A stretch of 64,000 bases of DNA from Lachnospiraceae bacterium NE2001 (GTDB lineage: Bacteria > Bacillota > Clostridia > Lachnospirales > Lachnospiraceae): NCBI GenBank assembly GCA_900110635.1, contig FOEK01000002.1, positions 62,001 through 126,000 on the forward strand, given 5' to 3'. Of this stretch, positions 6,456 through 57,527 are shown in pieces; position 1 is the stretch's first letter; every line of letters begins with the position of its first letter. Below the pieces are notes generated by a model, which was given only the letters and a program-made list of their open reading frames with translations, was not told the DNA's origin and did not search any database. Made by a program: the position numbers and the translations under genes.

Positions 6456-8126
6456 ATGAATACAGTTGGTGTTAGATCGCTTGTTAAGATTCTTAGTAAG
6501 AATTCGGAAATGAAGATGCCTGACAGTACATTATATAAGGTGCTGGCTCTTATTGCGGCACTGGGCATAATGATTCCGTGTACGCTTATTGTGGGATTTA
6601 TCAGTTATGTTATGACTGAAGCTTTGTATGAAGCTGGCAGTCCCGGCGGCGGAATGCTGTTCGAGATGCAGATTCTGTCGGCGTTTTCTATGATATTTGG
6701 TATTCTTGTTATTTTCAGCGTAATGTTCTTCTCATCGGATAGAGAACATTTTGTGACGCTTCCAATACCAAGTCATCATCTTATGATGGCGAAGTTTTTC
6801 TATGCTTATATGGCAGAGAGTATTATGGAGTTTATGGTGCTGCTTGCAGTTTTTGTTGGCTATGCCATAGCAATAGGGCGAAATGTAGGTGTTAAGGCGG
6901 CGCTTCATCCAGTTTCACTTATTTCGTCAATTATTGGAATCTTCCTTATTCCCCTGGTTCCAATGATTTATTGTGCAATCTTCAGTCTGATACTTATGGC
7001 GGCGCTGAGCCGTGTAAAGACTGCAAAGATTTTTTACAGGATGTCGACTATCTTTCTGCTTCTTTTTGCTGGACTGTTCCTTCTGTCACTAAGGGGGATT
7101 GGCGAAGTAAATATGGAAAACTATGTTGAGTCTTTGGGAAGCGGAAGCAATATACTACTCAGATCATTGAATATCATATTTTTCCCTGTACCTTGGCTTT
7201 CAAATGCTATCTCAGAGGGGAGTATTCTGTGGCTTCTTGCAAGCCTGGCAGGTAATGCAGGTCTTCTGGTGATTCTGTATTTTCTGGGAAAAGCGTTGTA
7301 TCAGAAAGGACTTTACACCGCGGCTAGTCTTGGTTCCTCCAAGAAGGCTGAGATTAAGTCAAAGGACATTACCAGCAGCTCACAGTTTAAAGCCAGTCTT
7401 CAGAAAGAGCTTCGTGTGATTCTGAGAACAAAGGCCTTTTCCGGTAACTGTGCGTATATCAACATACTCTGGCCTGTAGGTGTATTTCTGCTATTTCATT
7501 TTACAAGAAATAAGGGCTTCCTTGCTGCATTTATTGAAATGTATCAGATGGGGCGTGACAGAGCTGAAATGATACTTCTTATGGTGGTCATATCCATAGC
7601 GTTTATTGCTACAGCCCTTAATTCCATAGCATCTACAGCATTTACAAGAGAAGGACAGCATCTTTCACTTATTAAGTTTATTCCTGTTCCGTACGAGACT
7701 CAGGCCTACGCTAAGGCAACAGTAAGCCTGATGTTTACTTATCCAATGCTGCTTCTTTCAGATATTATGATATGTGCCTATATGAAAGTGCCAGTCTATA
7801 TGTGCATATATTATGCTATCCAGATGCTGCTGGCCCATCTTATTTCACTGGTAATAGGAATGATGATGGACAGTGCATCCCCATACGTAGAGTGGGATGA
7901 TGAATACAGTGCGCTCAGAGGAAACCTGAATACTTTCTTTAATATGGCAATAATGATGGTTCTTTCTGCTGTGATAGTGGGACTGGGACTGCTTATATAT
8001 GAACTGCTTAAGATGCCTATTGCTGCATATCACATTATTATATTTATTATTCTGGCTATAGTAGCAATTAGACTGGTGATGAAGGGAAAGACTGTGATCA
8101 TTACGAATATGGAGAAAATGAGCTAA
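6456..8126 (+). CDS. ABC transporter permease, large membrane protein
   Basis: A 556-residue polytopic protein with many hydrophobic segments in two halves, separated by a polar region around residues 290-340. It has no soluble catalytic domain. The ATG at 6456, behind an AGGTGA site, is preferred to the GTG at 6447, which overlaps that site. It lies directly downstream of the ATPase gene, so the two should assemble into one exporter. The family appears related to the putative ABC exporters of Clostridia. The cargo is unknown. Confidence 0.85.
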   Translation: MNTVGVRSLVKILSKNSEMKMPDSTLYKVLALIAALGIMIPCTLIVGFISYVMTEALYEAGSPGGGMLFEMQILSAFSMIFGILVIFSVMFFSSDREHFVTLPIPSHHLMMAKFFYAYMAESIMEFMVLLAVFVGYAIAIGRNVGVKAALHPVSLISSIIGIFLIPLVPMIYCAIFSLILMAALSRVKTAKIFYRMSTIFLLLFAGLFLLSLRGIGEVNMENYVESLGSGSNILLRSLNIIFFPVPWLSNAISEGSILWLLASLAGNAGLLVILYFLGKALYQKGLYTAASLGSSKKAEIKSKDITSSSQFKASLQKELRVILRTKAFSGNCAYINILWPVGVFLLFHFTRNKGFLAAFIEMYQMGRDRAEMILLMVVISIAFIATALNSIASTAFTREGQHLSLIKFIPVPYETQAYAKATVSLMFTYPMLLLSDIMICAYMKVPVYMCIYYAIQMLLAHLISLVIGMMMDSASPYVEWDDEYSALRGNLNTFFNMAIMMVLSAVIVGLGLLIYELLKMPIAAYHIIIFIILAIVAIRLVMKGKTVIITNMEKMS

Positions 8127-8340
8127 ATAGGCTCAGAAATATGTCAAAAAACAAAAAATACATCAAAAAAAGCATCAGAAAAGCATTAAAATAATTACGA
8201 AGATATTACAAAAAGCATTAAATGTTAAAAAAACTTTACAAAAAAGCAATTTATGGATATAATATAATAGTTTTATTGTGATATATTATGTAAATCACGT
8301 AATTATCTAAAAAACCACTTAAAAGGATGACCATTTAATC
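8127..8340 (+). promoter_or_regulatory. A-rich murA upstream region with strong promoter
   Basis: TTTACA (8235-8240) and TATAAT (8258-8263) are 17 bases apart. The 100 bases upstream are very A-rich, with a recurring AAAAGCATTAAA-like word, which may act as an UP-like or curved element. No gene is seen in this gap. Confidence 0.75.
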
Positions 8341-9660
8341 ATGGGACATAGTGAAGAACAATATGTCATCCGAGGCGGAAGACGTCTCGAAGGAGAAGTC
8401 GTTATAGCAGGTGCAAAGAATGCCGCTCTTGGTATACTTGCTGCAGCAGTAATGACAGATGACAGAGTTACAATAGAAAATGTACCATATGTTTCTGATA
8501 CAAGAACGCTTCTTAAAGCAATCGAGAATATCGGAGCAACGGTAGAATATAAGGATAGACACACAGTAGTTATTTGCGGTAAGGGCATCAGAGAGAGACA
8601 GCCGGTAGATGACGAGTACATAAGACGTATTCGTGCTTCCTATTATCTTATAGGCGCTCTTCTTGGAAAGCATAAGTATGCAAATGTAGCTCTTCCTGGA
8701 GGTTGTGATATAGGATCTCGTCCTATTGATCTCCATATCAAGGGCTTTGAAAAGCTGGGTGCAAAGACTGAGATAGTAGCAGGTGGTAGTATCATTGCCG
8801 AGGCAAATGAGCTTCATGGGGCACATATCTATCTGGATACTGTATCAGTAGGAGCTACCATCAATATTATGATGGCTGCATCTCTTTCACCTGGAAAAAC
8901 TACTATTGAAAATGCAGCTAAGGAGCCTCATATAGTTGATGTAGCAAACTTCCTCAACACTATGGGCGCAAACATAAAGGGTGCAGGTACTGATGTTATT
9001 CGAGTTCGTGGAGTTGAGAAGCTTCACGGTGCAGAGTATTCTATAATCCCAGATCAGATAGAAGCTGGAACGTTTATGGCAATGACAGTGGCTACCCGTG
9101 GCAATGTGCTGATCAAGAACGTAATCCCTAAGCACCTTGAGGCTATCTCCTCAAAGCTTGTAGAGATGGGAGCACACGTTATCGAGTATGATGATTCTGT
9201 AAGAGTTATGGCTGATGGAACCCTTAAATCTACACAGATTAAGACTCTTCCATATCCTGGCTTCCCAACAGATATGCAGGCTCAAATGTCAGCAATCCTT
9301 GGACTTTCCGAAGGAACCAGTATCGTAACTGAGAGTATCTTTGAGAACAGATTCAGATACGTGGCTGATCTTACCCGCATGGGTGCAAAGATAAGAGTTG
9401 AAGGCAACTCAGCCATCATAACCGGAGTAAAGGGATATAATGGTGCAGTGCTTAGAGCCACAGACCTGAGAGCAGGTGCGGCGCTTGTTATAGCTGCTCT
9501 TTCTGCAAATGGAGTCAGCACCATAGAGGATATTAAGTATATCAAGCGAGGCTATGAAGACTTTGCAGATAAGGTAACAGCCCTGGGCGGAATGATGAAG
9601 ACAGTTGAGTCTGAGCAGGATGTGCAGAAGGCTAAGCTGGAGCTTGCCAGCAATTTCTAG
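8341..9660 (+). CDS. murA: UDP-N-acetylglucosamine 1-carboxyvinyltransferase
   Basis: A 439-residue MurA. It transfers enolpyruvate from PEP to UDP-GlcNAc, the first committed step of peptidoglycan synthesis, in the cytosol. The PEP-binding cysteine loop LPGGCDIGSRPIDLH near residue 122 is intact, so fosfomycin sensitivity would be expected. The N-terminal GGRRLEGEVVIAGAKNAALGIL is also diagnostic. Single gene with its own promoter and a strong terminator. The length is about 20 residues above E. coli MurA, as in many Firmicutes. Confidence 0.97.
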   Translation: MGHSEEQYVIRGGRRLEGEVVIAGAKNAALGILAAAVMTDDRVTIENVPYVSDTRTLLKAIENIGATVEYKDRHTVVICGKGIRERQPVDDEYIRRIRASYYLIGALLGKHKYANVALPGGCDIGSRPIDLHIKGFEKLGAKTEIVAGGSIIAEANELHGAHIYLDTVSVGATINIMMAASLSPGKTTIENAAKEPHIVDVANFLNTMGANIKGAGTDVIRVRGVEKLHGAEYSIIPDQIEAGTFMAMTVATRGNVLIKNVIPKHLEAISSKLVEMGAHVIEYDDSVRVMADGTLKSTQIKTLPYPGFPTDMQAQMSAILGLSEGTSIVTESIFENRFRYVADLTRMGAKIRVEGNSAIITGVKGYNGAVLRATDLRAGAALVIAALSANGVSTIEDIKYIKRGYEDFADKVTALGGMMKTVESEQDVQKAKLELASNF

Positions 9661-45212: not shown

Positions 45213-46621
<1,409 letters not shown>

Positions 46622-46731: not shown

Positions 46732-46816
46732 GATGCTGCATGGCATGAGATTAAGTCCCGTAAGCCCAGTGTTTATGGGATTTTTCTTATGTTTTGAAGT
46801 GATTTATGACGTAGTA
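46732..46816 (+). repeat. 85-nt direct repeat, copy 1
   Basis: It matches 49147-49231 over 85 positions with about seven differences and no gap. It contains a terminator-like hairpin beginning AAGTCCC and ending GGGATTT. The two copies bracket the methyltransferase and two GNAT genes. Confidence 0.85.
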
Positions 46817-47087
46817 CATAAAACTACATAGATCGACATAAATAGGGGTTCATTTGAGGTCGTAATATATTATTATCTTGGGGATTTTTTTGTCTCAAGT
46901 TTAGATATAATAAAAGATGAGGTTGTGAAAACAGGATTAATAAGATAATGTTATATGGTAGATGGTGAGGCTGAAATGACCCAACTCTACATACATAGGT
47001 GAAAGGGAAAAAGATATGAGAATAGAAACAGAGTGACTTATCATAAGATCGATTGAACCGGGCGATTAAAAGATAGAGGTTATAGAG
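46817..47087 (+). other. Gene-free stretch before the methyltransferase gene
   Basis: AT-rich with only very short open frames. A TATAAT at 46906-46911 has no -35 partner. AAAGGGA at about 47002 precedes a 6-codon frame (MRIETE). No supported gene. Confidence 0.5.
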
Positions 47088-49146: not shown

Positions 49147-49231
49147 GATGCGGCATGGCATGAGATTAAGTCCCGTAGACCCAGGGTTTATGGGACTTTT
49201 CTTATGTTTTGAAGTGATTTGGGACGTAGTA
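49147..49231 (+). repeat. 85-nt direct repeat, copy 2, with terminator
   Basis: It matches 46732-46816. In this copy the hairpin AAGTCCCGTAGACCC/GGGTTTATGGGACTT pairs fully when wobbles are allowed and is followed by CTTTTCTT, so it should terminate transcription of the GNAT genes. Confidence 0.85.
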
Positions 49232-49263
49232 TATTAAATTAACTTTCTTGAATGGTGCACAAA

Positions 49264-49378
49264 CAAAATAGAAATGCCGAAAAAACCAAAATAGAAATGC
49301 CGAAAAAACTAAAACAGAAATGCCGAAAAAACCAAAATAGAAATGCCGAAAAACCCAAAATAAAAATGACGAAAAACA
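49264..49378 (+). repeat. Five 23-bp tandem repeats upstream of the DUF4143-Wadjet operon
   Basis: Five head-to-tail 23-bp units (49264, 49287, 49310, 49333, 49356), each built on AGAAATGCCGAAAAA. Units 1 and 2 are identical and later ones diverge. Each contains ATGCCGAAAAAA, but 23 is not a multiple of 3. The region ends 60 bases before the first gene of the operon and could be a binding-site array. Confidence 0.85.
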
Positions 49379-49438
49379 TAAAATGAACTTGAATTATTAA
49401 TTGAAGCATTGCATAATAAGTTTGGAGGTATAGACTAA

Positions 49439-50746
49439 ATGAGATATTATATAAGAGTGATAGATAAATATATAGATGAAATGATTAAGGCTTTCAATGC
49501 CATAAATATAGTGGGTCCAAAAGGTTGTGGAAAAACGAGAACTGCTAAGGAAAGATGTAAAACAATCATTGAGTTCCAGGATGAAGAAAAGAGAGAAGGA
49601 TATTTAAGCATTGCTAATACAGCTCCCAGGTTATTTTTGAAAAATGAAAAACCTATTTTGTTTGATGAATGGCAGGATGCTCCAAAGATATGGGGGACAA
49701 TAAGAAAAGATTGTGACGACAATCCTGAAACTTTTGGAGAGTATTATCTGACAGGATCATCAAGCAAAAAAATCGATACCCCTCATACTGGGACCGGAAG
49801 AATTTCTGAAATAACCATGTATCCTATGACATTATATGAAACTGGTGAGTCGACTGGAGGAGTTTCTATTTCCAGATTATTCGATGATGATAAGTATGAT
49901 ATAGATGGTGAAAAAAGCAATCTGAAATTAGAAGATCTTTTTTATATTATTTGTCGAGGCGGATGGCCAAGATGCCTCGCAATAAAAGACGACGCTGCTA
50001 AGCTTCGAATCGCAACAGACTATTTCGAACAAATATATAAAAAGGATATTAGTGCAGTTGATGGAGTAAAGAGAAATCCGGAGTGGGCAAGAACTATTCT
50101 TTGGTCATATGCAAGAAATATGGCTACATTATCTAAAAAAACGGTAATAAACTCTGATATAAAAGCAACGCATAATATAACAGATATTACAATTTCTTCT
50201 TATATAGAAGCTTTGGAAAAGTTATTTGTGATAAAAGATATAGATGCCTGGACTCCTCAGATAAGATCCAAAACGGCAATCAGATCAGCAAAAAAACACA
50301 TTTTTATTGATCCATCTATCGGACTGGCTGCTTTGGGAATTAAACCTGATTATTTTAATATGGATTTAGATATGTTTGGTCATGCCTTTGAAAATCTGGT
50401 TATCAGGGACCTTTTGTCATATGCTGAAACTCAAAATGCAAGAGTCATGCATTATAGTGATGATACAGGACTCGAGGCTGATGCAGTGTATCAGCTTTCT
50501 GATGGAAGATATGCTCTGATAGAGATAAAGACCGGTGTAAATGCTGTACCAAAGGCTGAAGAGGGGTTGTTAAAGTTTAGAGATGTAATTAGACAACATA
50601 ATGAAAAGGCTCTTTCAAATAAAGAACATCCTGGTGTTACCTATAGAGAACCATCTTTACTAATGATTATATGTGCCAACGCTGAAATGGCATATACAAC
50701 TGATAATGGTGTGAAGGTTGTCCCAGTGGGGTGTTTGAAAGATTAA
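49439..50746 (+). CDS. DUF4143/AAA_14 ATPase with PD-(D/E)XK-like domain
   Basis: A 435-residue ATPase. The Walker A VGPKGCGKTRTA lies near residue 25, the Walker B-like ILFDEWQDAP near residue 72 and the sensor-like YLTGSSSKK near 98. The C-terminal DUF4143 domain carries the nuclease-like residues in LEADAVYQL and ALIEIKTG near residue 360. The family is common in defence and toxin-like loci, but its role is poorly known. It ends 20 bases before jetA in the same direction, so it is probably the first gene of the Wadjet operon. Start after TTGGAGG. Confidence 0.88.
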   Translation: MRYYIRVIDKYIDEMIKAFNAINIVGPKGCGKTRTAKERCKTIIEFQDEEKREGYLSIANTAPRLFLKNEKPILFDEWQDAPKIWGTIRKDCDDNPETFGEYYLTGSSSKKIDTPHTGTGRISEITMYPMTLYETGESTGGVSISRLFDDDKYDIDGEKSNLKLEDLFYIICRGGWPRCLAIKDDAAKLRIATDYFEQIYKKDISAVDGVKRNPEWARTILWSYARNMATLSKKTVINSDIKATHNITDITISSYIEALEKLFVIKDIDAWTPQIRSKTAIRSAKKHIFIDPSIGLAALGIKPDYFNMDLDMFGHAFENLVIRDLLSYAETQNARVMHYSDDTGLEADAVYQLSDGRYALIEIKTGVNAVPKAEEGLLKFRDVIRQHNEKALSNKEHPGVTYREPSLLMIICANAEMAYTTDNGVKVVPVGCLKD

Positions 50747-50766
50747 ATATATAGCAGGACATTTAG

Positions 50767-52191
50767 ATGAATATTTTTAATTTGATTCCAATAGGATTTT
50801 TTAATCCTCTTGCAAGTGGGAGTAACAACAGAATATATGCTGACTGTCTTCAGCTTATTTATGATGAATATGATAGAGAAATCACATTTAGAATGGAGCG
50901 GGATAGAATTCGTGATGCTATAGCAATCTATCTTATGGATAATCATATAGATGTTGATTTGGATATTGATGATTATTCTTTGGAACAGACGGTTACGGAT
51001 GAAAAAGCAGCTTCATCGTCATATTCGGATCTGGCATCTCAGATAATACGTAAGCTTGCTTCTGATGAAGTAGGCTGGCTTGAGGAAGAAATTGATGATG
51101 CAACTTTCGGAAGGAATATAATTATGACTGAGCAGGGAATAATGCTGGCTGAGCTTCTCGCAAGAATGGAGAAGCCGGAAACAGCTGAATTCTCAAGCTA
51201 CATATATAATATATATAATACCCTATCGAATATTGAGCAATATGATGATATTTATGTTGATGTTTTAAAAAATGTATATAAAAATGCAAAGGGTTTATCC
51301 AAAGATTTAAAGACTCTGGCTACATTTATCAAAAAGATTATAGAACGGATGATTCATGAAGAAACATTTGAAAGCTTGACTGAAAATCTGCTTGATTACT
51401 TTAATGGGGATTTCATCAAAGAGTATTCTCGTCTTACAAAACGTCAGAATATAAGAACCTACAGAAGAGTAATCTTACAGAGATTAAATAACTTAAAAAT
51501 TGAAGAAACAAAAGAAAAACTTGTAATATGCTGCAAAAAGGAGGAAAAAATATCAGATGACAAGGCTGAAGAGTATGTTGAAGATATGATAAACAATACT
51601 GTCAGATTTCTGGATGGAGATTATGACAGAATCATGTCAAATATAAAGCATAAGATAAATGTATATCTTCAAGTGGCGGTCGGAAGAGCTCGTTTTATTA
51701 GAAATAAAGAAAAAAACATAAGGGGAGATATAGAAAAAACTTTGAAGATTCTTGGCGATGAAATGAAAGAGATGGATATTCATGATAGTATTCCTGATGA
51801 AATGAAATCTCTTTTTACATTTGATGATAATCAGTTTATTGATTTGTCGTCGATATCTTACCCGAGAAGAAGTCAGATCATTAAAGAAAACAGTACCCAG
51901 GATATTGTTGAAATCGATGAAGAAGATATAGAGAGAACTAGGCGGGAGTTTGAAAAAGAGCTGGAAGATATCTATGCAAAGGATAAGATGTCAGAATATT
52001 TGAATAGTATTATTGGAGAAAGGTTGAAGATTGATACTAGGGATTTCCCACTTGAAAACAAGGTTCAGCTGCTTAAAATGTTATCTTCCGCCGTATATGC
52101 TGGGGAAAGTGGATACATTATAGAGGTTGAGGATGGCTACATAGAGACAGAGCAGATGCTGATCAGAAAATTTAGTATGAAAAGGAAGTAG
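50767..52191 (+). CDS. jetA: Wadjet system protein JetA
   Basis: A 474-residue protein starting MNIFNLIPIGFFNPLASGSNN, the typical opening of the JetA family of the DUF5716 type; it is mostly helical. By analogy with MukF/MksF it is the kleisin that bridges the JetC heads. In known Wadjet systems JetABC extrudes DNA loops and senses small circular plasmids. It is followed 3 bases later by jetB. The family assignment rests on the N terminus, the size and the four-gene order. The DUF5716 form suggests a type II-like Wadjet. Confidence 0.85.
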   Translation: MNIFNLIPIGFFNPLASGSNNRIYADCLQLIYDEYDREITFRMERDRIRDAIAIYLMDNHIDVDLDIDDYSLEQTVTDEKAASSSYSDLASQIIRKLASDEVGWLEEEIDDATFGRNIIMTEQGIMLAELLARMEKPETAEFSSYIYNIYNTLSNIEQYDDIYVDVLKNVYKNAKGLSKDLKTLATFIKKIIERMIHEETFESLTENLLDYFNGDFIKEYSRLTKRQNIRTYRRVILQRLNNLKIEETKEKLVICCKKEEKISDDKAEEYVEDMINNTVRFLDGDYDRIMSNIKHKINVYLQVAVGRARFIRNKEKNIRGDIEKTLKILGDEMKEMDIHDSIPDEMKSLFTFDDNQFIDLSSISYPRRSQIIKENSTQDIVEIDEEDIERTRREFEKELEDIYAKDKMSEYLNSIIGERLKIDTRDFPLENKVQLLKMLSSAVYAGESGYIIEVEDGYIETEQMLIRKFSMKRK

Positions 52192-52194
52192 AAT

Positions 52195-52881
52195 ATGGAA
52201 CTTTCAGGTTTTGAAAATGAATGGGAAGGGCTTACCTCCGGTGAAAAAACAATGTTTCAGAAATGTGTCCGGATTATGCTGAAGAAAACATTTATAGTTT
52301 ATGATAAAGGTGAAGAGGAAAAAAAGGAATACTTTTTTATTTCTAAGCATTCAGATTTATTTAGCAGATATTTAAGTCCTATAGGATATGATGTTCTGGT
52401 TGACAGAGATAATAAGGTTATCATGTTTCAGAACACTGTCAGTGCAGGTGAATCATCAAAGATGCAGATCAACAGGTGTAACCTGTCTCTTGCTGATAGT
52501 ATAGTGTTATGTGTTTTATTTACCATTTATTCCGACAGAGTCAGACAGGGGAGTCTTGCAGAATCTATAATTATTTCAATTACTGATCTGAGATTTCAGT
52601 TTGAAAAATATAAGGTTCAGGACAGATTCGAGAAAAAAAGGGAACTTTCTGAGACAATAAAAAAACTGGAAAGATATAATCTAATAGAAATGAATGGGAA
52701 ACTTGGTGAAGCAGATACAAAAATAAAAATATTTCCGTCCATTCAATTTGCTTTAGATGCTAATGAGTTTCATCTGTTTGCTGAACAGGCTGAGAAAAGG
52801 ATGTTTACGAAGGATTTGCAGAGCCGGGATATAGATTTGGAAAATGAAGATGGAGAAGTATTTGATGATACCGATGAATGA
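52195..52881 (+). CDS. jetB: Wadjet system protein JetB
   Basis: A 228-residue protein in the position and size range of JetB (DUF4194/DUF6063 type), the equivalent of the winged-helix kleisin-associated subunit MukE. Winged-helix-like content is suggested by LADSIVLCVLFTIYSDR and ELSETIKKLERYNLIEMNG. The C-terminal tail is acidic (DLENEDGEVFDDTDE). It is tightly placed after jetA, and its 3' end overlaps the start of jetC. Assigned mainly from the operon order jetABCD. Confidence 0.83.
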   Translation: MELSGFENEWEGLTSGEKTMFQKCVRIMLKKTFIVYDKGEEEKKEYFFISKHSDLFSRYLSPIGYDVLVDRDNKVIMFQNTVSAGESSKMQINRCNLSLADSIVLCVLFTIYSDRVRQGSLAESIIISITDLRFQFEKYKVQDRFEKKRELSETIKKLERYNLIEMNGKLGEADTKIKIFPSIQFALDANEFHLFAEQAEKRMFTKDLQSRDIDLENEDGEVFDDTDE

Positions 52882-55800
52882 TTATCTGAATATAGCAGAT
52901 AGAAAAACAGCAACAAAAGTTCGCTTGATAAATTGGTCAAAATTCCAGGATGTTACTATAAATCTGGAAGGCTCCACTCTGATAACAGGAGTTAACGGAA
53001 CTGGTAAAAGTACTATTCTGGATGCGATGACATATCTTTTGACAGGAAATAAGAGATTTAATATCGCTGCGGGTGATAAAGACAGAACTGTGAAGTCATA
53101 TGTAAGAGGAGATACTCAGAGTGAAGGAGAATACAGATACCTTAGAACAGGTGCTGTAACCTCATATATTGCAATGGAATTCTGGTCTCCGTTGGAGAAT
53201 ACATTTATTGTGGGCGGAGTATGCATTGAATCAATGAATGAGCAGGATGTTAAGACGGGCGCGTGGTTTATCATGAAGGATTCCAGGCTGGATGATTTCG
53301 AATTTTGTTATATAAAAGATGGAAAGTATTTTACCCATAGCAAAAGTAATCTACTCTTTAAGGGAAGACGAATTAAAGGCAAGGATTTTAAAGGCGAGGA
53401 AAGAGGAACTGAAGAACTGCTTCGAAAGCTGGGGCTTAGGTGTGATGTAGCAAAATACAGATCAAAACTTATAAAGATGATGGCATTTAAGCCGGAAAAG
53501 GACATAGATAAATTCATTAGAGAAGCTGTACTAGATCCGGGAAAGATTACGTCCCTTTCAGAAATAAAAGAGCAGAAGGTACAGTTTGAGGATCTGAGAA
53601 GAATCTATGTTGAGCTTGAGGAAGGAAAGAAAATACTTGAGGAATTAGAGGAAAGAACCAGAGAATATGAAAAAAGAAGGGATATATACGATATAAGAAA
53701 GCTGGTATATTCTTATCAGAACATTCCTATTACTGAGGATGATATCAGTAACTCAAACAGATTGATTGAATATCAGCTCCAAAGAATAAAAGAAATGAAT
53801 AAGACTAAAGAAGTATTGGAGCAGGAACAGAAAAGGGCTATCGACAGATATTCTGCTTCAATAAATAATGATATATATACAGGGATGAAAAAAACTCTTG
53901 AGGAGTATGAAAAACGGATACAGGAATATAAAAATGAGTTAGAAAAAATTGATTCGCAAATAGTAAAGCTGAAAAAATTAAAGGAAGGCTACACGAATAT
54001 TAAAGATATAGTTGCTTTAGATAAAGCAGATAGTAAAGCTCTTCTGATGATAGACAGTGCGAAGACCGATACCGAAAGCGTAATAAATGCTATTACTAAT
54101 CTTCGTAATGCTGTAGATGAATCCGAAAAAAGTATTAATAAAGAGTTTGTTCATATTGAGGATAAAGAAGAGGAGCTGAATCAACAGCAGGAAGAAGTTG
54201 CCGGTATAATTCGTGAGTTAAAGAATGAGATAATAACATATCCGGCAGATGCGGCTCGAGCAAAGGAGATATTAACAGAAGAGTTTAAGAAAATTGGACT
54301 TGTATGTGGAAAGGATTTAAATATAAGATTTCTGTCTGAACTGGTATCAGAAATAAAAGACCTTAGATGGCAGAAGGCTATAGAGACATTTCTAGGTAAT
54401 AAAAGATTCCATATAATCGTGGACTCAAAGTATGCTTTCGATGCCATGAAAATACTTAAGAGCAGGAAAATATATAATGCAACAGTTGCGATGACTAATA
54501 AGCTTCCGGAGTCGGACATTACACCGGGTTCAGCGGCATCTCTTCTTTTTGTGCCCAATGCTGATGCCAGAAAGTACATTAATTATCTTCTGAATGGCAT
54601 TCATCTGTGTGAGAATCTGGAAGAATTGAATGATTATCCTAAGGGTGGACTTACCCGGGAAGGTATGCTGGCAAAGAGCTACGCCGTAAGAATGATGGAT
54701 ATGAGAAAAACTATTCCTTATATGGGTAAAACGGCTGTAGCTGAACAGTTAAAGGCTGCAGAGAAAAAACTGCTTTGGGTTGAGAAAGAGATAACAAAGT
54801 TAAATCAGAAAAAAGAAACTATAGAGAATCACAGAGACAGAATCAGGGCAATTATACCTATAATCAATCAGGAACTGGATATATCGGCTCCTAAGAGATA
54901 TGAGGAACTTTCTGATAAAAAGGACAAGGCAGAGGGTAAGAGGCAGGAAATAGAAAAGGATCCTTCTTTTGAAGCTGCGCTTAAGGAACAGCAGGCCGCC
55001 AAGAAGGAGCTGGATGAGGTCAATGAAAAGTTAAAGAAGAACAGTTCCGAGATAGGTGCCTCGGAAAACGAAATAAAAAAATACAGTGATAGTGTAAAGG
55101 AAAGTGAGAAAAAACTAAAGGAATACACCTCTCTTTATGAGGAAGAAATATTGGGAAAAACAGAACTGAGAAGACAGGTGGAGTTGGAGTACGCCAGACT
55201 CAGAAAAGAGGATGGGTTTGCGGTTTCTTACAAAAACCTCAATTCGGTTGAGAATGATATGAAGCGAGCCTGTGATAATATGGAAAGTGTTCAGATGGGT
55301 TATTGTCATATAGTTGGCCTGGATGTTACGAACAGAGGACCTTCATTTATTCCGTTTTACAGAAGTGAATACAAAAATACAGCAAATGTAAAGATAGAGG
55401 AGGCAAAGAATCAGCTTGAAAAAAAATCTAAGGAACTGGAAAGTGCTTTTATGATTGATTTCGTCGGAGAAATCAATGAGAGTATCCAGAGGGCTGAAGA
55501 AGAAATGGACATAATAAATGCGGAATTAAAAAAACTTCCTTTTGGCAATGACACATATAAGTTTATAAAATCAGAAAAAAGTGACAGAGCAGTATTCTTT
55601 AAGATAAAGAGAAAATTGAAGGATTATCTGGACAATCCTGAAAACTATATGAACTCTAATCGTGATGATGAAGAAATGGAGCAGTATATTAAAGAATACA
55701 TGGATATAATCCTTATGGAGGAGGATGAAGAGGAGTATACTGATTATAGAAAGTATTTTACCTATGATATGGTGATAACCAGTAAACAGGGGGATAATAC

Positions 55801-56131
55801 TGTTGAGGCCAATCTGTCAAAAAAACAGGGGTCGGCAAGTAATGGTGAAAAGCAGACACCATATTTCATAATTCTTGCTGCAAGCCTTATGCAGTTCTAT
55901 CATGAAAAATGTTGTGAGAGACTTGCATTTATAGATGAAGCATTTTCTGCTCTTTCAAGAGAAAGAATCGAGCAGATGGTAAGGTATCTGGAGGATAATC
56001 ATTTTCAGGTTATATATGCAGCACCTCCGGAAAAAATAGGAAGCATAGGAGAGCATGTGACATCTACTGTCAGCCTTATCAACTCAGGAAGATATACAAG
56101 TGCTGTTGAAGGAACCTTGAGGAAACGTTAA
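52865..56131 (+). CDS. jetC: Wadjet system SMC-like ATPase JetC
   Basis: A protein of about 1088 residues with SMC/MukB architecture. The N-terminal half of the head has Walker A GVNGTGKSTILDAM near residue 45. Long coiled coils (about 230-440 and 580-800) flank a hinge-like segment around residues 460-570. The C-terminal half has the signature region SNGEKQTPYFIILAAS and the Walker B LAFIDEAFSALS. It drives loop extrusion in the JetABC complex. Possible starts are 52844, 52865 and 52874; 52865 has GGAG 9 bases upstream. It overlaps jetB. Confidence 0.93.
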   Translation: MIPMNDYLNIADRKTATKVRLINWSKFQDVTINLEGSTLITGVNGTGKSTILDAMTYLLTGNKRFNIAAGDKDRTVKSYVRGDTQSEGEYRYLRTGAVTSYIAMEFWSPLENTFIVGGVCIESMNEQDVKTGAWFIMKDSRLDDFEFCYIKDGKYFTHSKSNLLFKGRRIKGKDFKGEERGTEELLRKLGLRCDVAKYRSKLIKMMAFKPEKDIDKFIREAVLDPGKITSLSEIKEQKVQFEDLRRIYVELEEGKKILEELEERTREYEKRRDIYDIRKLVYSYQNIPITEDDISNSNRLIEYQLQRIKEMNKTKEVLEQEQKRAIDRYSASINNDIYTGMKKTLEEYEKRIQEYKNELEKIDSQIVKLKKLKEGYTNIKDIVALDKADSKALLMIDSAKTDTESVINAITNLRNAVDESEKSINKEFVHIEDKEEELNQQQEEVAGIIRELKNEIITYPADAARAKEILTEEFKKIGLVCGKDLNIRFLSELVSEIKDLRWQKAIETFLGNKRFHIIVDSKYAFDAMKILKSRKIYNATVAMTNKLPESDITPGSAASLLFVPNADARKYINYLLNGIHLCENLEELNDYPKGGLTREGMLAKSYAVRMMDMRKTIPYMGKTAVAEQLKAAEKKLLWVEKEITKLNQKKETIENHRDRIRAIIPIINQELDISAPKRYEELSDKKDKAEGKRQEIEKDPSFEAALKEQQAAKKELDEVNEKLKKNSSEIGASENEIKKYSDSVKESEKKLKEYTSLYEEEILGKTELRRQVELEYARLRKEDGFAVSYKNLNSVENDMKRACDNMESVQMGYCHIVGLDVTNRGPSFIPFYRSEYKNTANVKIEEAKNQLEKKSKELESAFMIDFVGEINESIQRAEEEMDIINAELKKLPFGNDTYKFIKSEKSDRAVFFKIKRKLKDYLDNPENYMNSNRDDEEMEQYIKEYMDIILMEEDEEEYTDYRKYFTYDMVITSKQGDNTVEANLSKKQGSASNGEKQTPYFIILAASLMQFYHEKCCERLAFIDEAFSALSRERIEQMVRYLEDNHFQVIYAAPPEKIGSIGEHVTSTVSLINSGRYTSAVEGTLRKR

Positions 56132-56171
56132 TAGATTCTGAGTATATAGAAAAAAGAAAGAAATTAGAAAG

Positions 56172-57404
56172 ATGAAGCTGAGTTCTAATCAAAAGAAAAT
56201 CCTTGAAAAACTCATTACCAAGTTTGAAAACAGTAAAACCTATGAAAAATCAAACAAGTTGAAGCAGAGTTTTTATGTTAAACCTTCGGAAATATTTAAA
56301 AACTATTATAGTGATTTTGCCGATATGGATGAAGTGAGTGATCTTGAAAATGATACCTATGAACTTCAATCTGAAGGATATGTTGAAATAAAGTATAAGA
56401 AGCATTCTTCAGTGATAGATAAAATCTATCTGAATGTAAGTAAGGTAGATCAAATCAGAAGTGTAATCGGAATAAAAGAGAAAAACGAGGTAAAAACTGA
56501 AGAATTAAGATTTTTTGAAGGCTATATGGAAAATGATGGTTTTTCTAGGTGGTATAGCAGTCAGGAGATAGAAAGAATACGTGGTGGAAAGAAAATCAGA
56601 TATTCTATTCCTGAATCAAAGATAATAATTGATCTTATTGACAGAATCATTGGAAATAAAGATGAACTGCTTGAAAGAGAGTTATCAATAATAACATTTG
56701 GAAATAGTAAGACCTTTGAAAAAAGTTACAGAAGGAAGGCATGTAGATTATTATCAGACTATCTTGAAGCTACAGATCAAATGAGTAATTATAATATCGC
56801 AGTCAACTCAGATACAGAAAGAGATCATTTACTTCTTGAAAGATATGGAATCTATCAGAATCCGGCATATGTATATATCAAGGGAAATATAAAAATTAAA
56901 TATTCAGACGATAGAATAATTGATGTGCTGAAGGATTCTTCAATAGCTATTTCTATATCATTGATGAATCAGATTAATGAGGTGGTTGTAACTGATAAAA
57001 ATATAGTTACGGTAGAAAATTTAACATCTTTTCATAGGATAGAAGATGAAAATACTTCGTTTGTTTATACCGGTGGATATTCAGGAAGAACTGTGAAGAG
57101 ATTTCTTCAATATATAAATCATAATAATTCTGACAAAAGCTTTTATCATTTTGGTGATTTGGATCCAGATGGTTTTTGTATACTGGATAATCTGATAGAT
57201 GCTACAGGAATAGACATAAAACCGCTTCATATGGACATGGAGAATCTTATAAAATATAAGTCCTATGCAAAACCTCTTTCAGAAAGAGATGTAAAACTGG
57301 CCAGATCATTAATTAGAAAAGGACATAATATTGATATTTTGAAATACATGATAGAGGAGAATATAAAATTAGAGCAGGAGATCATTACATATAATTTAAA
57401 TTAA
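56172..57404 (+). CDS. jetD: Wadjet system nuclease JetD
   Basis: A 410-residue protein with a C-terminal Toprim-like DUF2220 domain. The acidic metal motif is visible as FHFGDLDPDGFCIL-like residues (FGDLDPDG near residue 335), as in Spo11/TopoVI-A. The N-terminal part is helical and probably contacts DNA or the SMC complex. In characterised Wadjet systems JetD cuts the plasmid DNA trapped by JetABC. It starts 40 bases after jetC behind GAAAGAAATTAGAAAG and ends the operon. Confidence 0.9.
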   Translation: MKLSSNQKKILEKLITKFENSKTYEKSNKLKQSFYVKPSEIFKNYYSDFADMDEVSDLENDTYELQSEGYVEIKYKKHSSVIDKIYLNVSKVDQIRSVIGIKEKNEVKTEELRFFEGYMENDGFSRWYSSQEIERIRGGKKIRYSIPESKIIIDLIDRIIGNKDELLERELSIITFGNSKTFEKSYRRKACRLLSDYLEATDQMSNYNIAVNSDTERDHLLLERYGIYQNPAYVYIKGNIKIKYSDDRIIDVLKDSSIAISISLMNQINEVVVTDKNIVTVENLTSFHRIEDENTSFVYTGGYSGRTVKRFLQYINHNNSDKSFYHFGDLDPDGFCILDNLIDATGIDIKPLHMDMENLIKYKSYAKPLSERDVKLARSLIRKGHNIDILKYMIEENIKLEQEIITYNLN

Positions 57405-57497: not shown

Positions 57498-57527
57498 AGC
57501 AATGATCGCTCAGGGTGTTTGCTAATC
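57498..57527 (+). repeat. Right copy of the gdhA 3'-end direct repeat (candidate attR)
   Basis: It is identical to 46592-46621 except for one synonymous-position base (GGT for GGA). It lies outside any gene here, which marks it as a displaced piece of the gdhA end. Confidence 0.75.

What the first reader, a model, noticed from the sequence alone, without database searches (positions are those of the whole stretch)
49439..57404. Complete JetABCD (Wadjet) anti-plasmid system preceded by a DUF4143 ATPase in one operon
Four consecutive genes show kleisin-like, MukE-like, SMC-like and Toprim/DUF2220 features in the jetA-jetB-jetC-jetD order, with 3-base, overlapping and 40-base junctions. The JetA start resembles the DUF5716 form, not DUF3375, which suggests a type II-like Wadjet. 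The extra first gene, a DUF4143/AAA_14 ATPase with a PD-(D/E)XK-like end only 20 bases before jetA, is not part of the described core system and could be an accessory module. That accessory role is inference.
Basis: partly seen in the sequence, partly recalled or inferred. Interest (0 to 1): 0.8.

Follow-up and report, generated by a model that had tools for sequence, protein, structure and literature searches.

The report
Anti-plasmid operon led by DUF4143 gene
A standard bacterial anti-plasmid gene set sits behind a poorly understood ATPase gene whose relatives carry rows of short DNA repeats in front of them at a spacing that goes with the type of ATPase, which suggests that the ATPase reads its own repeats and controls the operon.

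Summary
The five genes are there as described. PADLOC makes the last four a complete Wadjet of type I, not type II-like, and the first gene the untested candidate PDC-S01 (AAA_14 + DUF4143).

The DUF4143 gene is no fixed jet subunit: four orthologues of 70-75% identity have no jetA within 1.5 kb downstream, nor has any of 124 other DUF4143 genes within 150 bp. Yet DUF4143 genes of four different subgroups lie just before jetA in separate loci (about 0.06 expected under a simple null), and the two nearest relatives keep the five-gene order.

The unexpected part lies upstream: five tandem 23-bp repeats at the promoter. In this DUF4143 subgroup the best upstream repeat offset is 23 or 46 bp in 51 of 51 full-length genes (held-out 18 of 19; outside the family 5 of 5; IMG/VR 4 of 4; control genes 30 of 1171), although unit sequences differ and some arrays are weak. 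A second subgroup has 32-33 bp. Unit similarity follows protein identity, best in the middle region (r 0.57); flanking DNA does not (r 0.01).

Best reading: the ATPase binds its private operator array and regulates itself and jetABCD. Binding and regulation are inferred; no description was found in the searches made.

The parts
49261..49387 (+). Operator-like array: about five tandem copies of a 23-bp unit (consensus CAAAATAGAAATGCCGAAAAAAC; TRF span 49264-49376)
   Evidence: TRF 4.9 copies, 92% match; the repeat finder D1, spacing 23 five times; span of the self-match; in the whole own genome five of the six forward matches with up to 3 mismatches lie here
49389..49417 (+). Promoter-like TTGAAT-17-CATAAT directly after the array
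   Evidence: consensus scan; in the whole region fewer such sites were found than in shuffles, so weak
49168..49198 (+). Terminator-like hairpin upstream of the array (would separate the operon from the upstream genes)
   Evidence: consensus scan, 14 pairs
49439..50746 (+). AAA_14-DUF4143 ATPase with PD-(D/E)XK-like C-terminus (PADLOC candidate PDC-S01)
   Evidence: model pLDDT 89; Foldseek SSO1545 and PABY2304, weaker Cdn1 and Cdc6/Orc1
50767..52191 (+). jetA (kleisin-like, DUF5716, type I)
52195..52881 (+). jetB (MukE-like, DUF4194, type I)
52844..56131 (+). jetC (SMC ATPase, type I); Walker A GVNGTGKST and Walker B FIDEAF read by eye
56172..57404 (+). jetD (Toprim nuclease, type I); HFGDLDPDG read by eye
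46592..46621 (+). Left 30-bp direct repeat, the 3' end of a gene read by eye as glutamate dehydrogenase (gdhA, 45234-46619); island boundary
   Evidence: the repeat finder D3, right copy 97% identical; a like pair in L161
57498..57527 (+). Right 30-bp direct repeat; island boundary
   Evidence: in L162 only a left copy was found

Best explanation
A complete type I Wadjet operon is transcribed together with a leading AAA+ ATPase (AAA_14-DUF4143, PDC-S01). The ATPase recognises, through its middle winged-helix-like region, the row of 23-bp repeats at the promoter, probably as an ATP-dependent oligomer with one protomer or dimer per unit, and so regulates (most likely represses) its own transcription and that of jetABCD. 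A change in nucleotide state, or binding of foreign DNA or another ligand, would release it and raise Wadjet levels, after which JetABC extrudes and JetD cuts circular DNA. Shown here: gene content and type, array, subgroup-specific pitch, covariation of repeat and protein, lack of other such sites in the genome, recurrent placement before jetA. Inferred: binding, sign of regulation, co-transcription, trigger, oligomer. Established elsewhere: plasmid restriction by Wadjet (PMC10586767, passages).
For: Type I Wadjet profiles for all four genes. Array at the promoter. Best upstream repeat offset 23 or 46 bp in 51 of 51 full-length genes of this subgroup, 18 of 19 held-out genes, 5 of 5 genomes outside the family, 4 of 4 distinct IMG/VR contigs; 30 of 1171 control genes. 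A second subgroup has 32, 33, 65 or 66 bp in 30 of 37 (controls 107 of 1171). Unit similarity follows protein identity (41 genes: Mantel r 0.54, 0 of 1000 permutations); by part r is 0.49 (1-182), 0.57 (183-309), 0.49 (310-435), and in a joint regression the coefficients are 0.05, 0.55 and -0.03 (no test of these coefficients was made); DNA just upstream of the arrays gives r 0.01. In the own genome the unit, with up to 3 mismatches, occurs five times in this array and once elsewhere, equal to the control count of one. Nearest folds of the model: SSO1545 and PABY2304; weaker Cdn1 nuclease and Cdc6/Orc1 on DNA. Terminator-like hairpin before the array, and only 20 bases between DUF4143 and jetA. 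In L161 array, DUF4143 and jetABCD alone lie between two copies of the gdhA end.
Against: No binding or expression data. Most DUF4143 genes precede other genes or none: of 124, 52 have a co-directional ORF of 80 aa or more within 150 bp and none is jetA, so control of jet is not the family's general task. Some arrays in the subgroup are weak (self-match 7.5 for L159, 10 for L143 and L273). Promoter calls are weak consensus matches, and in six of 49 genes the best one lies upstream of the array. An internal jetA promoter inside the DUF4143 gene is not excluded. L161 has about 100 extra bases between promoter and DUF4143 start. The L179 and L211 genes before jetA show no regular direct repeats, and the inverted repeat of L211 scores 7.0, near the control median 6.5. 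L163 and L164, with JetA 77 and 70% identical, have other leading genes.
Confidence: 0.6

Rival explanations
1. Two independent genes share an island: DUF4143/PDC-S01 is an autonomous, self-regulated anti-phage or selfish module, and jetABCD merely sits behind it and is read through from its promoter without functional meaning.
For: DUF4143 is common (172 matches in 60 family genomes) and mostly not linked to jet; four orthologues of 70-75% identity have no jetA within 1.5 kb downstream. Clustering of defence genes is not part of the chance estimate.
Against: Co-directional placement 4-106 bases before jetA by four unlike DUF4143 subgroups, about 0.06 expected; order kept in L161 and L162.
Confidence: 0.3
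2. The DUF4143 ATPase is a working accessory subunit of Wadjet, acting on the complex or on DNA with its PD-(D/E)XK-like domain.
For: Walker residues and E318, D348, E362, K364 are invariant in 19 aligned subgroup members; recurrent linkage.
Against: No such gene found before jetA in 129 of 137 loci; the linked proteins belong to different subgroups with little mutual similarity, unlike a subunit that must fit JetABCD; the family lives mostly without jet. E362 and K364 are not invariant across subgroups.
Confidence: 0.07
3. The repeats act as RNA (as in type III toxin-antitoxin pairs or CRISPR-like arrays) and not as DNA operators.
For: Tandem repeats precede a single gene; in six of 49 genes the best promoter-like match is upstream of the array.
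Against: In most of the 49 genes the -35-like box lies inside or just after the array, so most of the array would not be transcribed; no spacers between units; no toxin domain in the Pfam scan of the leading gene; repeat similarity follows the protein.
Confidence: 0.03

Closest known systems
Wadjet type I (JetABCD)
   Same: All four proteins match JetA1, JetB1, JetC1, JetD1 models over nearly full length, in the order A-B-C-D
   Different: Headed by a DUF4143 ATPase with its own repeat array; in 130 of 137 jetA loci no DUF4143 gene was found within 700 bp upstream
PDC-S01 (PADLOC phage-defence candidate; AAA_14-DUF4143)
   Same: PDC-S01 model matches at 4.2e-57. In print: ATPase fused to a PD-(D/E)XK-type domain, fourth most common defence across prokaryotes, validation pending for most PDCs (PMC12988326: section 20 and passages)
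   Different: Upstream arrays and their fixed pitch were not met in what I read; here it heads a Wadjet operon
BrxR, WYL regulator of defence islands (PMC9122601, passages)
   Same: Its product binds repeats at its own promoter and represses defence genes
   Different: BrxR is a WYL-domain protein on inverted repeats; here a AAA+ ATPase and direct repeats at 23-bp pitch, binding not shown
SSO1545 / PABY2304 archaeal AAA+ ATPases (2fna, 2qen)
   Same: Closest solved folds, Foldseek E 6.6e-7 and 7.9e-7
   Different: Global TM-scores only 0.39-0.50, identity 14 and 12%; no operator array known to me

Membership tests
Wadjet type I | JetA of the DUF5716 kind | tested here: met
   JetA1 models, best 1.2e-67; Pfam JetA 9.4e-103
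Wadjet type I | JetB (DUF4194), JetC (SMC), JetD (Toprim) in order A-B-C-D | tested here: met
   JetB1 9.3e-56, JetC1 1.4e-171, JetD1 1.7e-106
Wadjet type I | Restriction of circular plasmids | not testable with these tools
   needs a transformation assay
Wadjet type II | JetA2 model (DUF3375, by recall) | tested here: not met
   no JetA2 among the 11 families matched by the JetA protein; JetC2 and JetD2 match far more weakly than type I models
PDC-S01 | AAA_14 + DUF4143 architecture, PDC-S01 model | tested here: met
PDC-S01 | Anti-phage activity | not testable with these tools
   a candidate only; no test met in the passages and section read
BrxR-type WYL regulators | WYL domain | tested here: not met
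   no WYL model in the Pfam scan of the leading gene at E 0.1
Autoregulator with private operator | Repeats at the own promoter that covary with the protein | tested here: met
Autoregulator with private operator | Sequence-specific binding and change of transcription | not testable with these tools
   needs EMSA and reporter

The most novel reading that the evidence does not exclude
AAA_14-DUF4143 (PDC-S01), one of the commonest candidate defence genes of prokaryotes, is a family of sequence-specific DNA-binding AAA+ proteins that assemble on self-encoded operator arrays whose pitch is fixed by the protein subgroup (23 bp or 32-33 bp, about one helical turn apart; inverted repeats in a third subgroup), and such modules are repeatedly captured at the head of defence operons such as jetABCD to make them inducible.
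Probability: 0.5. Interest if true: 0.78.

Novelty: new variant of a known kind. Interest (0 to 1): 0.6.

Why it matters
[quoted passage not shown] A cognate DNA array with a fixed pitch gives the family a concrete candidate substrate and a simple binding assay. It would also show how some Wadjet operons are controlled, and it offers a large natural set of protein-operator pairs with changed sequence but unchanged geometry.

Tried and rejected
Type II Wadjet: rejected by profiles. Conserved accessory subunit: rejected as a general rule by two surveys. CRISPR-like or type III toxin-antitoxin array: no spacers, no toxin domain, promoter position. General tandem-repeat noise: controls and shuffles. 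A regulon with the same operator elsewhere in the genome: none beyond the control level. Direct repeats as a mark of every DUF4143 gene: not so; the subgroup of about 408 aa (50 genes) has no common pitch, though an inverted repeat scoring 11 or more is present in 19 of 49 against 18 of 400 controls. SLFN_AlbA_2 or HATPase_c_4 leaders of other jet operons: in the three looked at (L171, L182, L190) no regular array, only a 12-bp pair in L182. In one search two downstream neighbours (in L003 and L255) matched my JetC profile at the loose cut-off; the L003 one reads by eye as an ABC transporter ATPase; not followed. Literature: DUF4143 alone gave one paper, Wadjet with DUF4143 none; PF13635/PF13173/AAA_14 gave 571 papers of which the 20 listed were off-topic; COG1373 six, listing only; tandem direct repeats with AAA ATPase and related words one, listing only; PDC-S01/PDC-S27 three, two of them looked into. 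The library lacks most subscription papers and holds no bioRxiv preprints, so absence from print is not shown.

Rows dropped. One search kept the best 80 of 154 relatives; 167 jetA ORFs, 153 after joining at 98% identity, 137 with 700 bp upstream. At 70% JetA clustering L179 and L211 fall into one cluster, though their DUF4143 proteins are of different groups. One search leaves out genes under 350 aa or scoring 100 or less, identical proteins and repeat loci of the same gene; this drops L285, the one miss of the held-out test. In one search the 20 held-out stretches gave 21 rows: L288 gave none; two rows (second genes of L278 and L279, pitch 60 and 32) are not of the window's subgroup and were not counted; 18 of the other 19 had 23 or 46. 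For the L099 subgroup 27 of 30 rows had 32, 33, 65 or 66; L309 and L336 had been seen before, so 25 of 28 are new; one open row of L336 was dropped for short upstream. L349 duplicates L346, the fragment L350 was left out. One search scanned 48 upstream neighbours chosen by me; one search had found 113 loci with a co-directional ORF within 700 bp. One search used 41 of 51 genes (arrays scoring under 12 and proteins over 95% alike left out). One search used a wrong start for L354 and L355; corrected. One search failed by a script error and was rerun.
Full report
OBSERVATION. The five ORFs lie at the stated places with the stated junctions. PADLOC and Pfam identify a DUF4143/AAA_14 gene followed by jetA, jetB, jetC, jetD. 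The genome has one JetA and nine DUF4143 matches. Catalytic signatures of JetC and JetD can be read by eye in the translations, so the system looks intact.

IS THE FIRST GENE PART OF IT? In 299 genomes of the same family 85 have a JetA match. I fetched 92 stretches around the listed places and 78 more loci by a JetA alignment search of GTDB genomes, which kept the best 80 of 154 relatives. After joining JetA over 98% alike, 137 loci have at least 700 bp upstream; in 7 of them a DUF4143 gene, and in one more (L164) an ATPase_2 relative that PADLOC calls PDC-S27, lies co-directionally within 700 bp (Pfam for L162, L163, L164, L179, L197, L211, L161 by my profile and 98% identity; PADLOC). The window and its two nearest relatives L161 (Eubacterium sp. 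RGIG4867, roe deer rumen) and L162 (Lachnospiraceae RUG13451), JetA 95 and 94% identical, share the 20-base junction. L163 has one 535 bases away with a gene between that reads by eye as GNAT. With 172 DUF4143 matches in 60 family genomes, about 3000 genes per genome (my estimate) and 52 of 124 DUF4143 genes having a close co-directional ORF, about 0.06 such cases are expected in 137 loci; four are seen, counting the window, L161 and L162 once (Poisson 4e-7 for 3 copies per genome, 3e-5 for 9). At 70% JetA clustering L179 and L211 fall together, but their DUF4143 proteins do not. Clustering of defence genes is not in that null, so the figure overstates the surprise.

From the other side the link is weak: the four orthologues of 70-75% identity (L132-L135) have no jetA in the 1.5 kb downstream, and none of 124 DUF4143-anchored genes other than the window and L099 has jetA as co-directional ORF within 150 bp. 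So the gene is a recurrent, exchangeable leader, not a subunit. Among 48 upstream neighbours of jetA genes that I chose for scanning, Pfam found DUF4143 in 4, AAA_14 in 5, HATPase_c_4 in 4 and SLFN_AlbA_2 in 3.

ISLAND. A 30-bp stretch at the 3' end of the gene read by eye as gdhA, 46592-46621, recurs at 57498-57527. In L161 a like pair encloses just array, DUF4143 and jetABCD; in L162 only the left copy was found. The five genes thus seem to travel as one cassette at the gdhA end; the window copy has further cargo (a methyltransferase and two GNAT genes) between two copies of a 95-nt element. Among the ORFs of 90 aa or more I saw no integrase in the island.

THE ARRAY. Directly before the DUF4143 gene lie 4.9 copies of a 23-bp unit, 92% matching. 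Several other DUF4143 genes of the same genome show different repeats at the same place, and so do relatives. A local self-match score on 300 upstream bases reached 13 in 37 of 76 DUF4143 genes, 62 of 1171 control genes and 0 of 228 shuffles. The pitch turned out to go with the protein subgroup. I noted this and then fetched further genes: 18 of 19 of the window's subgroup had best offset 23 or 46 (the miss is a truncated gene). Over 145 non-redundant genes, group 0 (window type) has 23 in 43 and 46 in 8 of 51; group 2 (L099 type) has 32, 33, 65 or 66 in 30 of 37; group 1 (about 408 aa) has no common pitch but an inverted repeat such as TTCGGCTAWAAT...ATTAGCCGAA over the -10 region more often than controls (19 of 49 against 18 of 400 at score 11; the 8-mer TAGCCGAA in 9 of 49 and 0 of 1171). 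Genomes outside the family gave 23 in 5 of 5, two of the same class and three of other classes (the start of L357 is uncertain), IMG/VR contigs 23 or 46 in 4 of 4. Among control genes the best offset is 23 or 46 in 30 of 1171 and 32, 33, 65 or 66 in 107 of 1171. In L279 two neighbouring DUF4143 genes of different subgroups each have their own pitch, 23 and 32. Some group 0 arrays are weak (self-match 7.5 to 12.5), and some genes are close relatives of each other, so the counts are not all independent.

COVARIATION. In group 0 the unit sequences differ widely, but their similarity rises with protein identity (Mantel r 0.52, 0 of 2000 permutations). With 41 genes r is 0.49, 0.57 and 0.49 for residues 1-182, 183-309 and 310-435, each with 0 of 1000 permutations; in a joint regression only the middle part carries weight (0.05, 0.55, -0.03; pairs are not independent and no test was made); the 69 bases upstream of the arrays give r 0.01 against whole-protein identity. 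This is what a protein reading its own DNA sites would produce, and it points to the middle region. The predicted structure (pLDDT 89) is nearest to the AAA+ proteins SSO1545 and PABY2304; Cdn1, a nuclease, and Cdc6/Orc1 on DNA follow with low TM-scores of 0.21-0.26. That 183-309 holds a winged helix and the C-terminus a PD-(D/E)XK fold is my inference from these and from motifs. The 19 aligned subgroup members keep the Walker residues and E318, D348, E362, K364; across 13 members of several subgroups E318, E346 and D348 are invariant, E362 and K364 are not.

PROMOTER. In 48 of 49 group 0 genes with a promoter-like match its -35 box begins no later than 15 bases after the array; in six of these it lies upstream of the array. 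Such matches are frequent by chance, so this only suggests an operator position. In the window a terminator-like hairpin precedes the array, and the unit is not found elsewhere in the genome beyond the control level: the target appears to be this operon alone.

LITERATURE. PDC-S01 is named as fourth most common defence across prokaryotes, an ATPase fused to a PD-(D/E)XK-type domain, with validation pending for most PDCs (PMC12988326: section 20 read, other passages seen); it is the most frequent individual locus in a bovine rumen survey (PMC13356809, passages). In Thermus thermophilus a gene annotated AAA 14, DUF4143 and HTH motifs rose 6.6-fold with a plasmid present, only in the strain with Argonaute (PMC4406477, section 7 read). 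BrxR is a known repressor of defence genes on its own promoter repeats (PMC9122601, passages). On Wadjet, passages of PMC10586767 and PMC12287153 were seen, on SSO1545 passages of PMC4599002 and PMC5760070; nothing on such a leader or array appeared in them.

VERDICT. An ordinary type I Wadjet in a new arrangement, plus a strong and, as far as searched, undescribed regularity of the leading gene's family. Binding and regulation remain inference.

Noticed in passing
window 46732-46826 and 49147-49241: A 95-nt element, second copy 89% identical, on both sides of a methyltransferase and two GNAT genes, as if that cargo had come in by duplication; the right copy holds a terminator-like hairpin
   Followed up: partly
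L279 2186-3469 and 3719-5029: Two adjacent DUF4143 genes of different subgroups, each with its own upstream array pitch (23 and 32 bp)
   Followed up: partly
L164, upstream of 7429-8898: PDC-S27 gene before jetA with several copies, in both orientations by eye, of a CCGAGGAATATAATT-like motif at its promoter: a second PDC family may have own operators too
   Followed up: no
L182 7539-9008, L190 7544-8935: Genes with Schlafen AlbA_2, HATPase_c_4 and winged-helix domains also sit just before jetA
   Followed up: partly
L153 1-1444, L250 1-1222 (minus strand): Genes 50 and 125 bases after DUF4143 that look by eye like hsdM of type I restriction systems
   Followed up: no
L161 about 7536-7650: A hairpin-rich stretch of about 100 bases between the promoter-like site and the DUF4143 start, absent in the window; perhaps a small mobile element
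   Followed up: no
L122 6645-9211; L039, L040, L043 and others: JetD before JetA in L122, and no JetD match with my profile near several jetABC loci
   Followed up: no
G000:C25:130973-131452, about 5 kb past the window end: Another DUF4143 gene, not among the BLAST hits of the window's own, one of nine matches in the genome
   Followed up: partly
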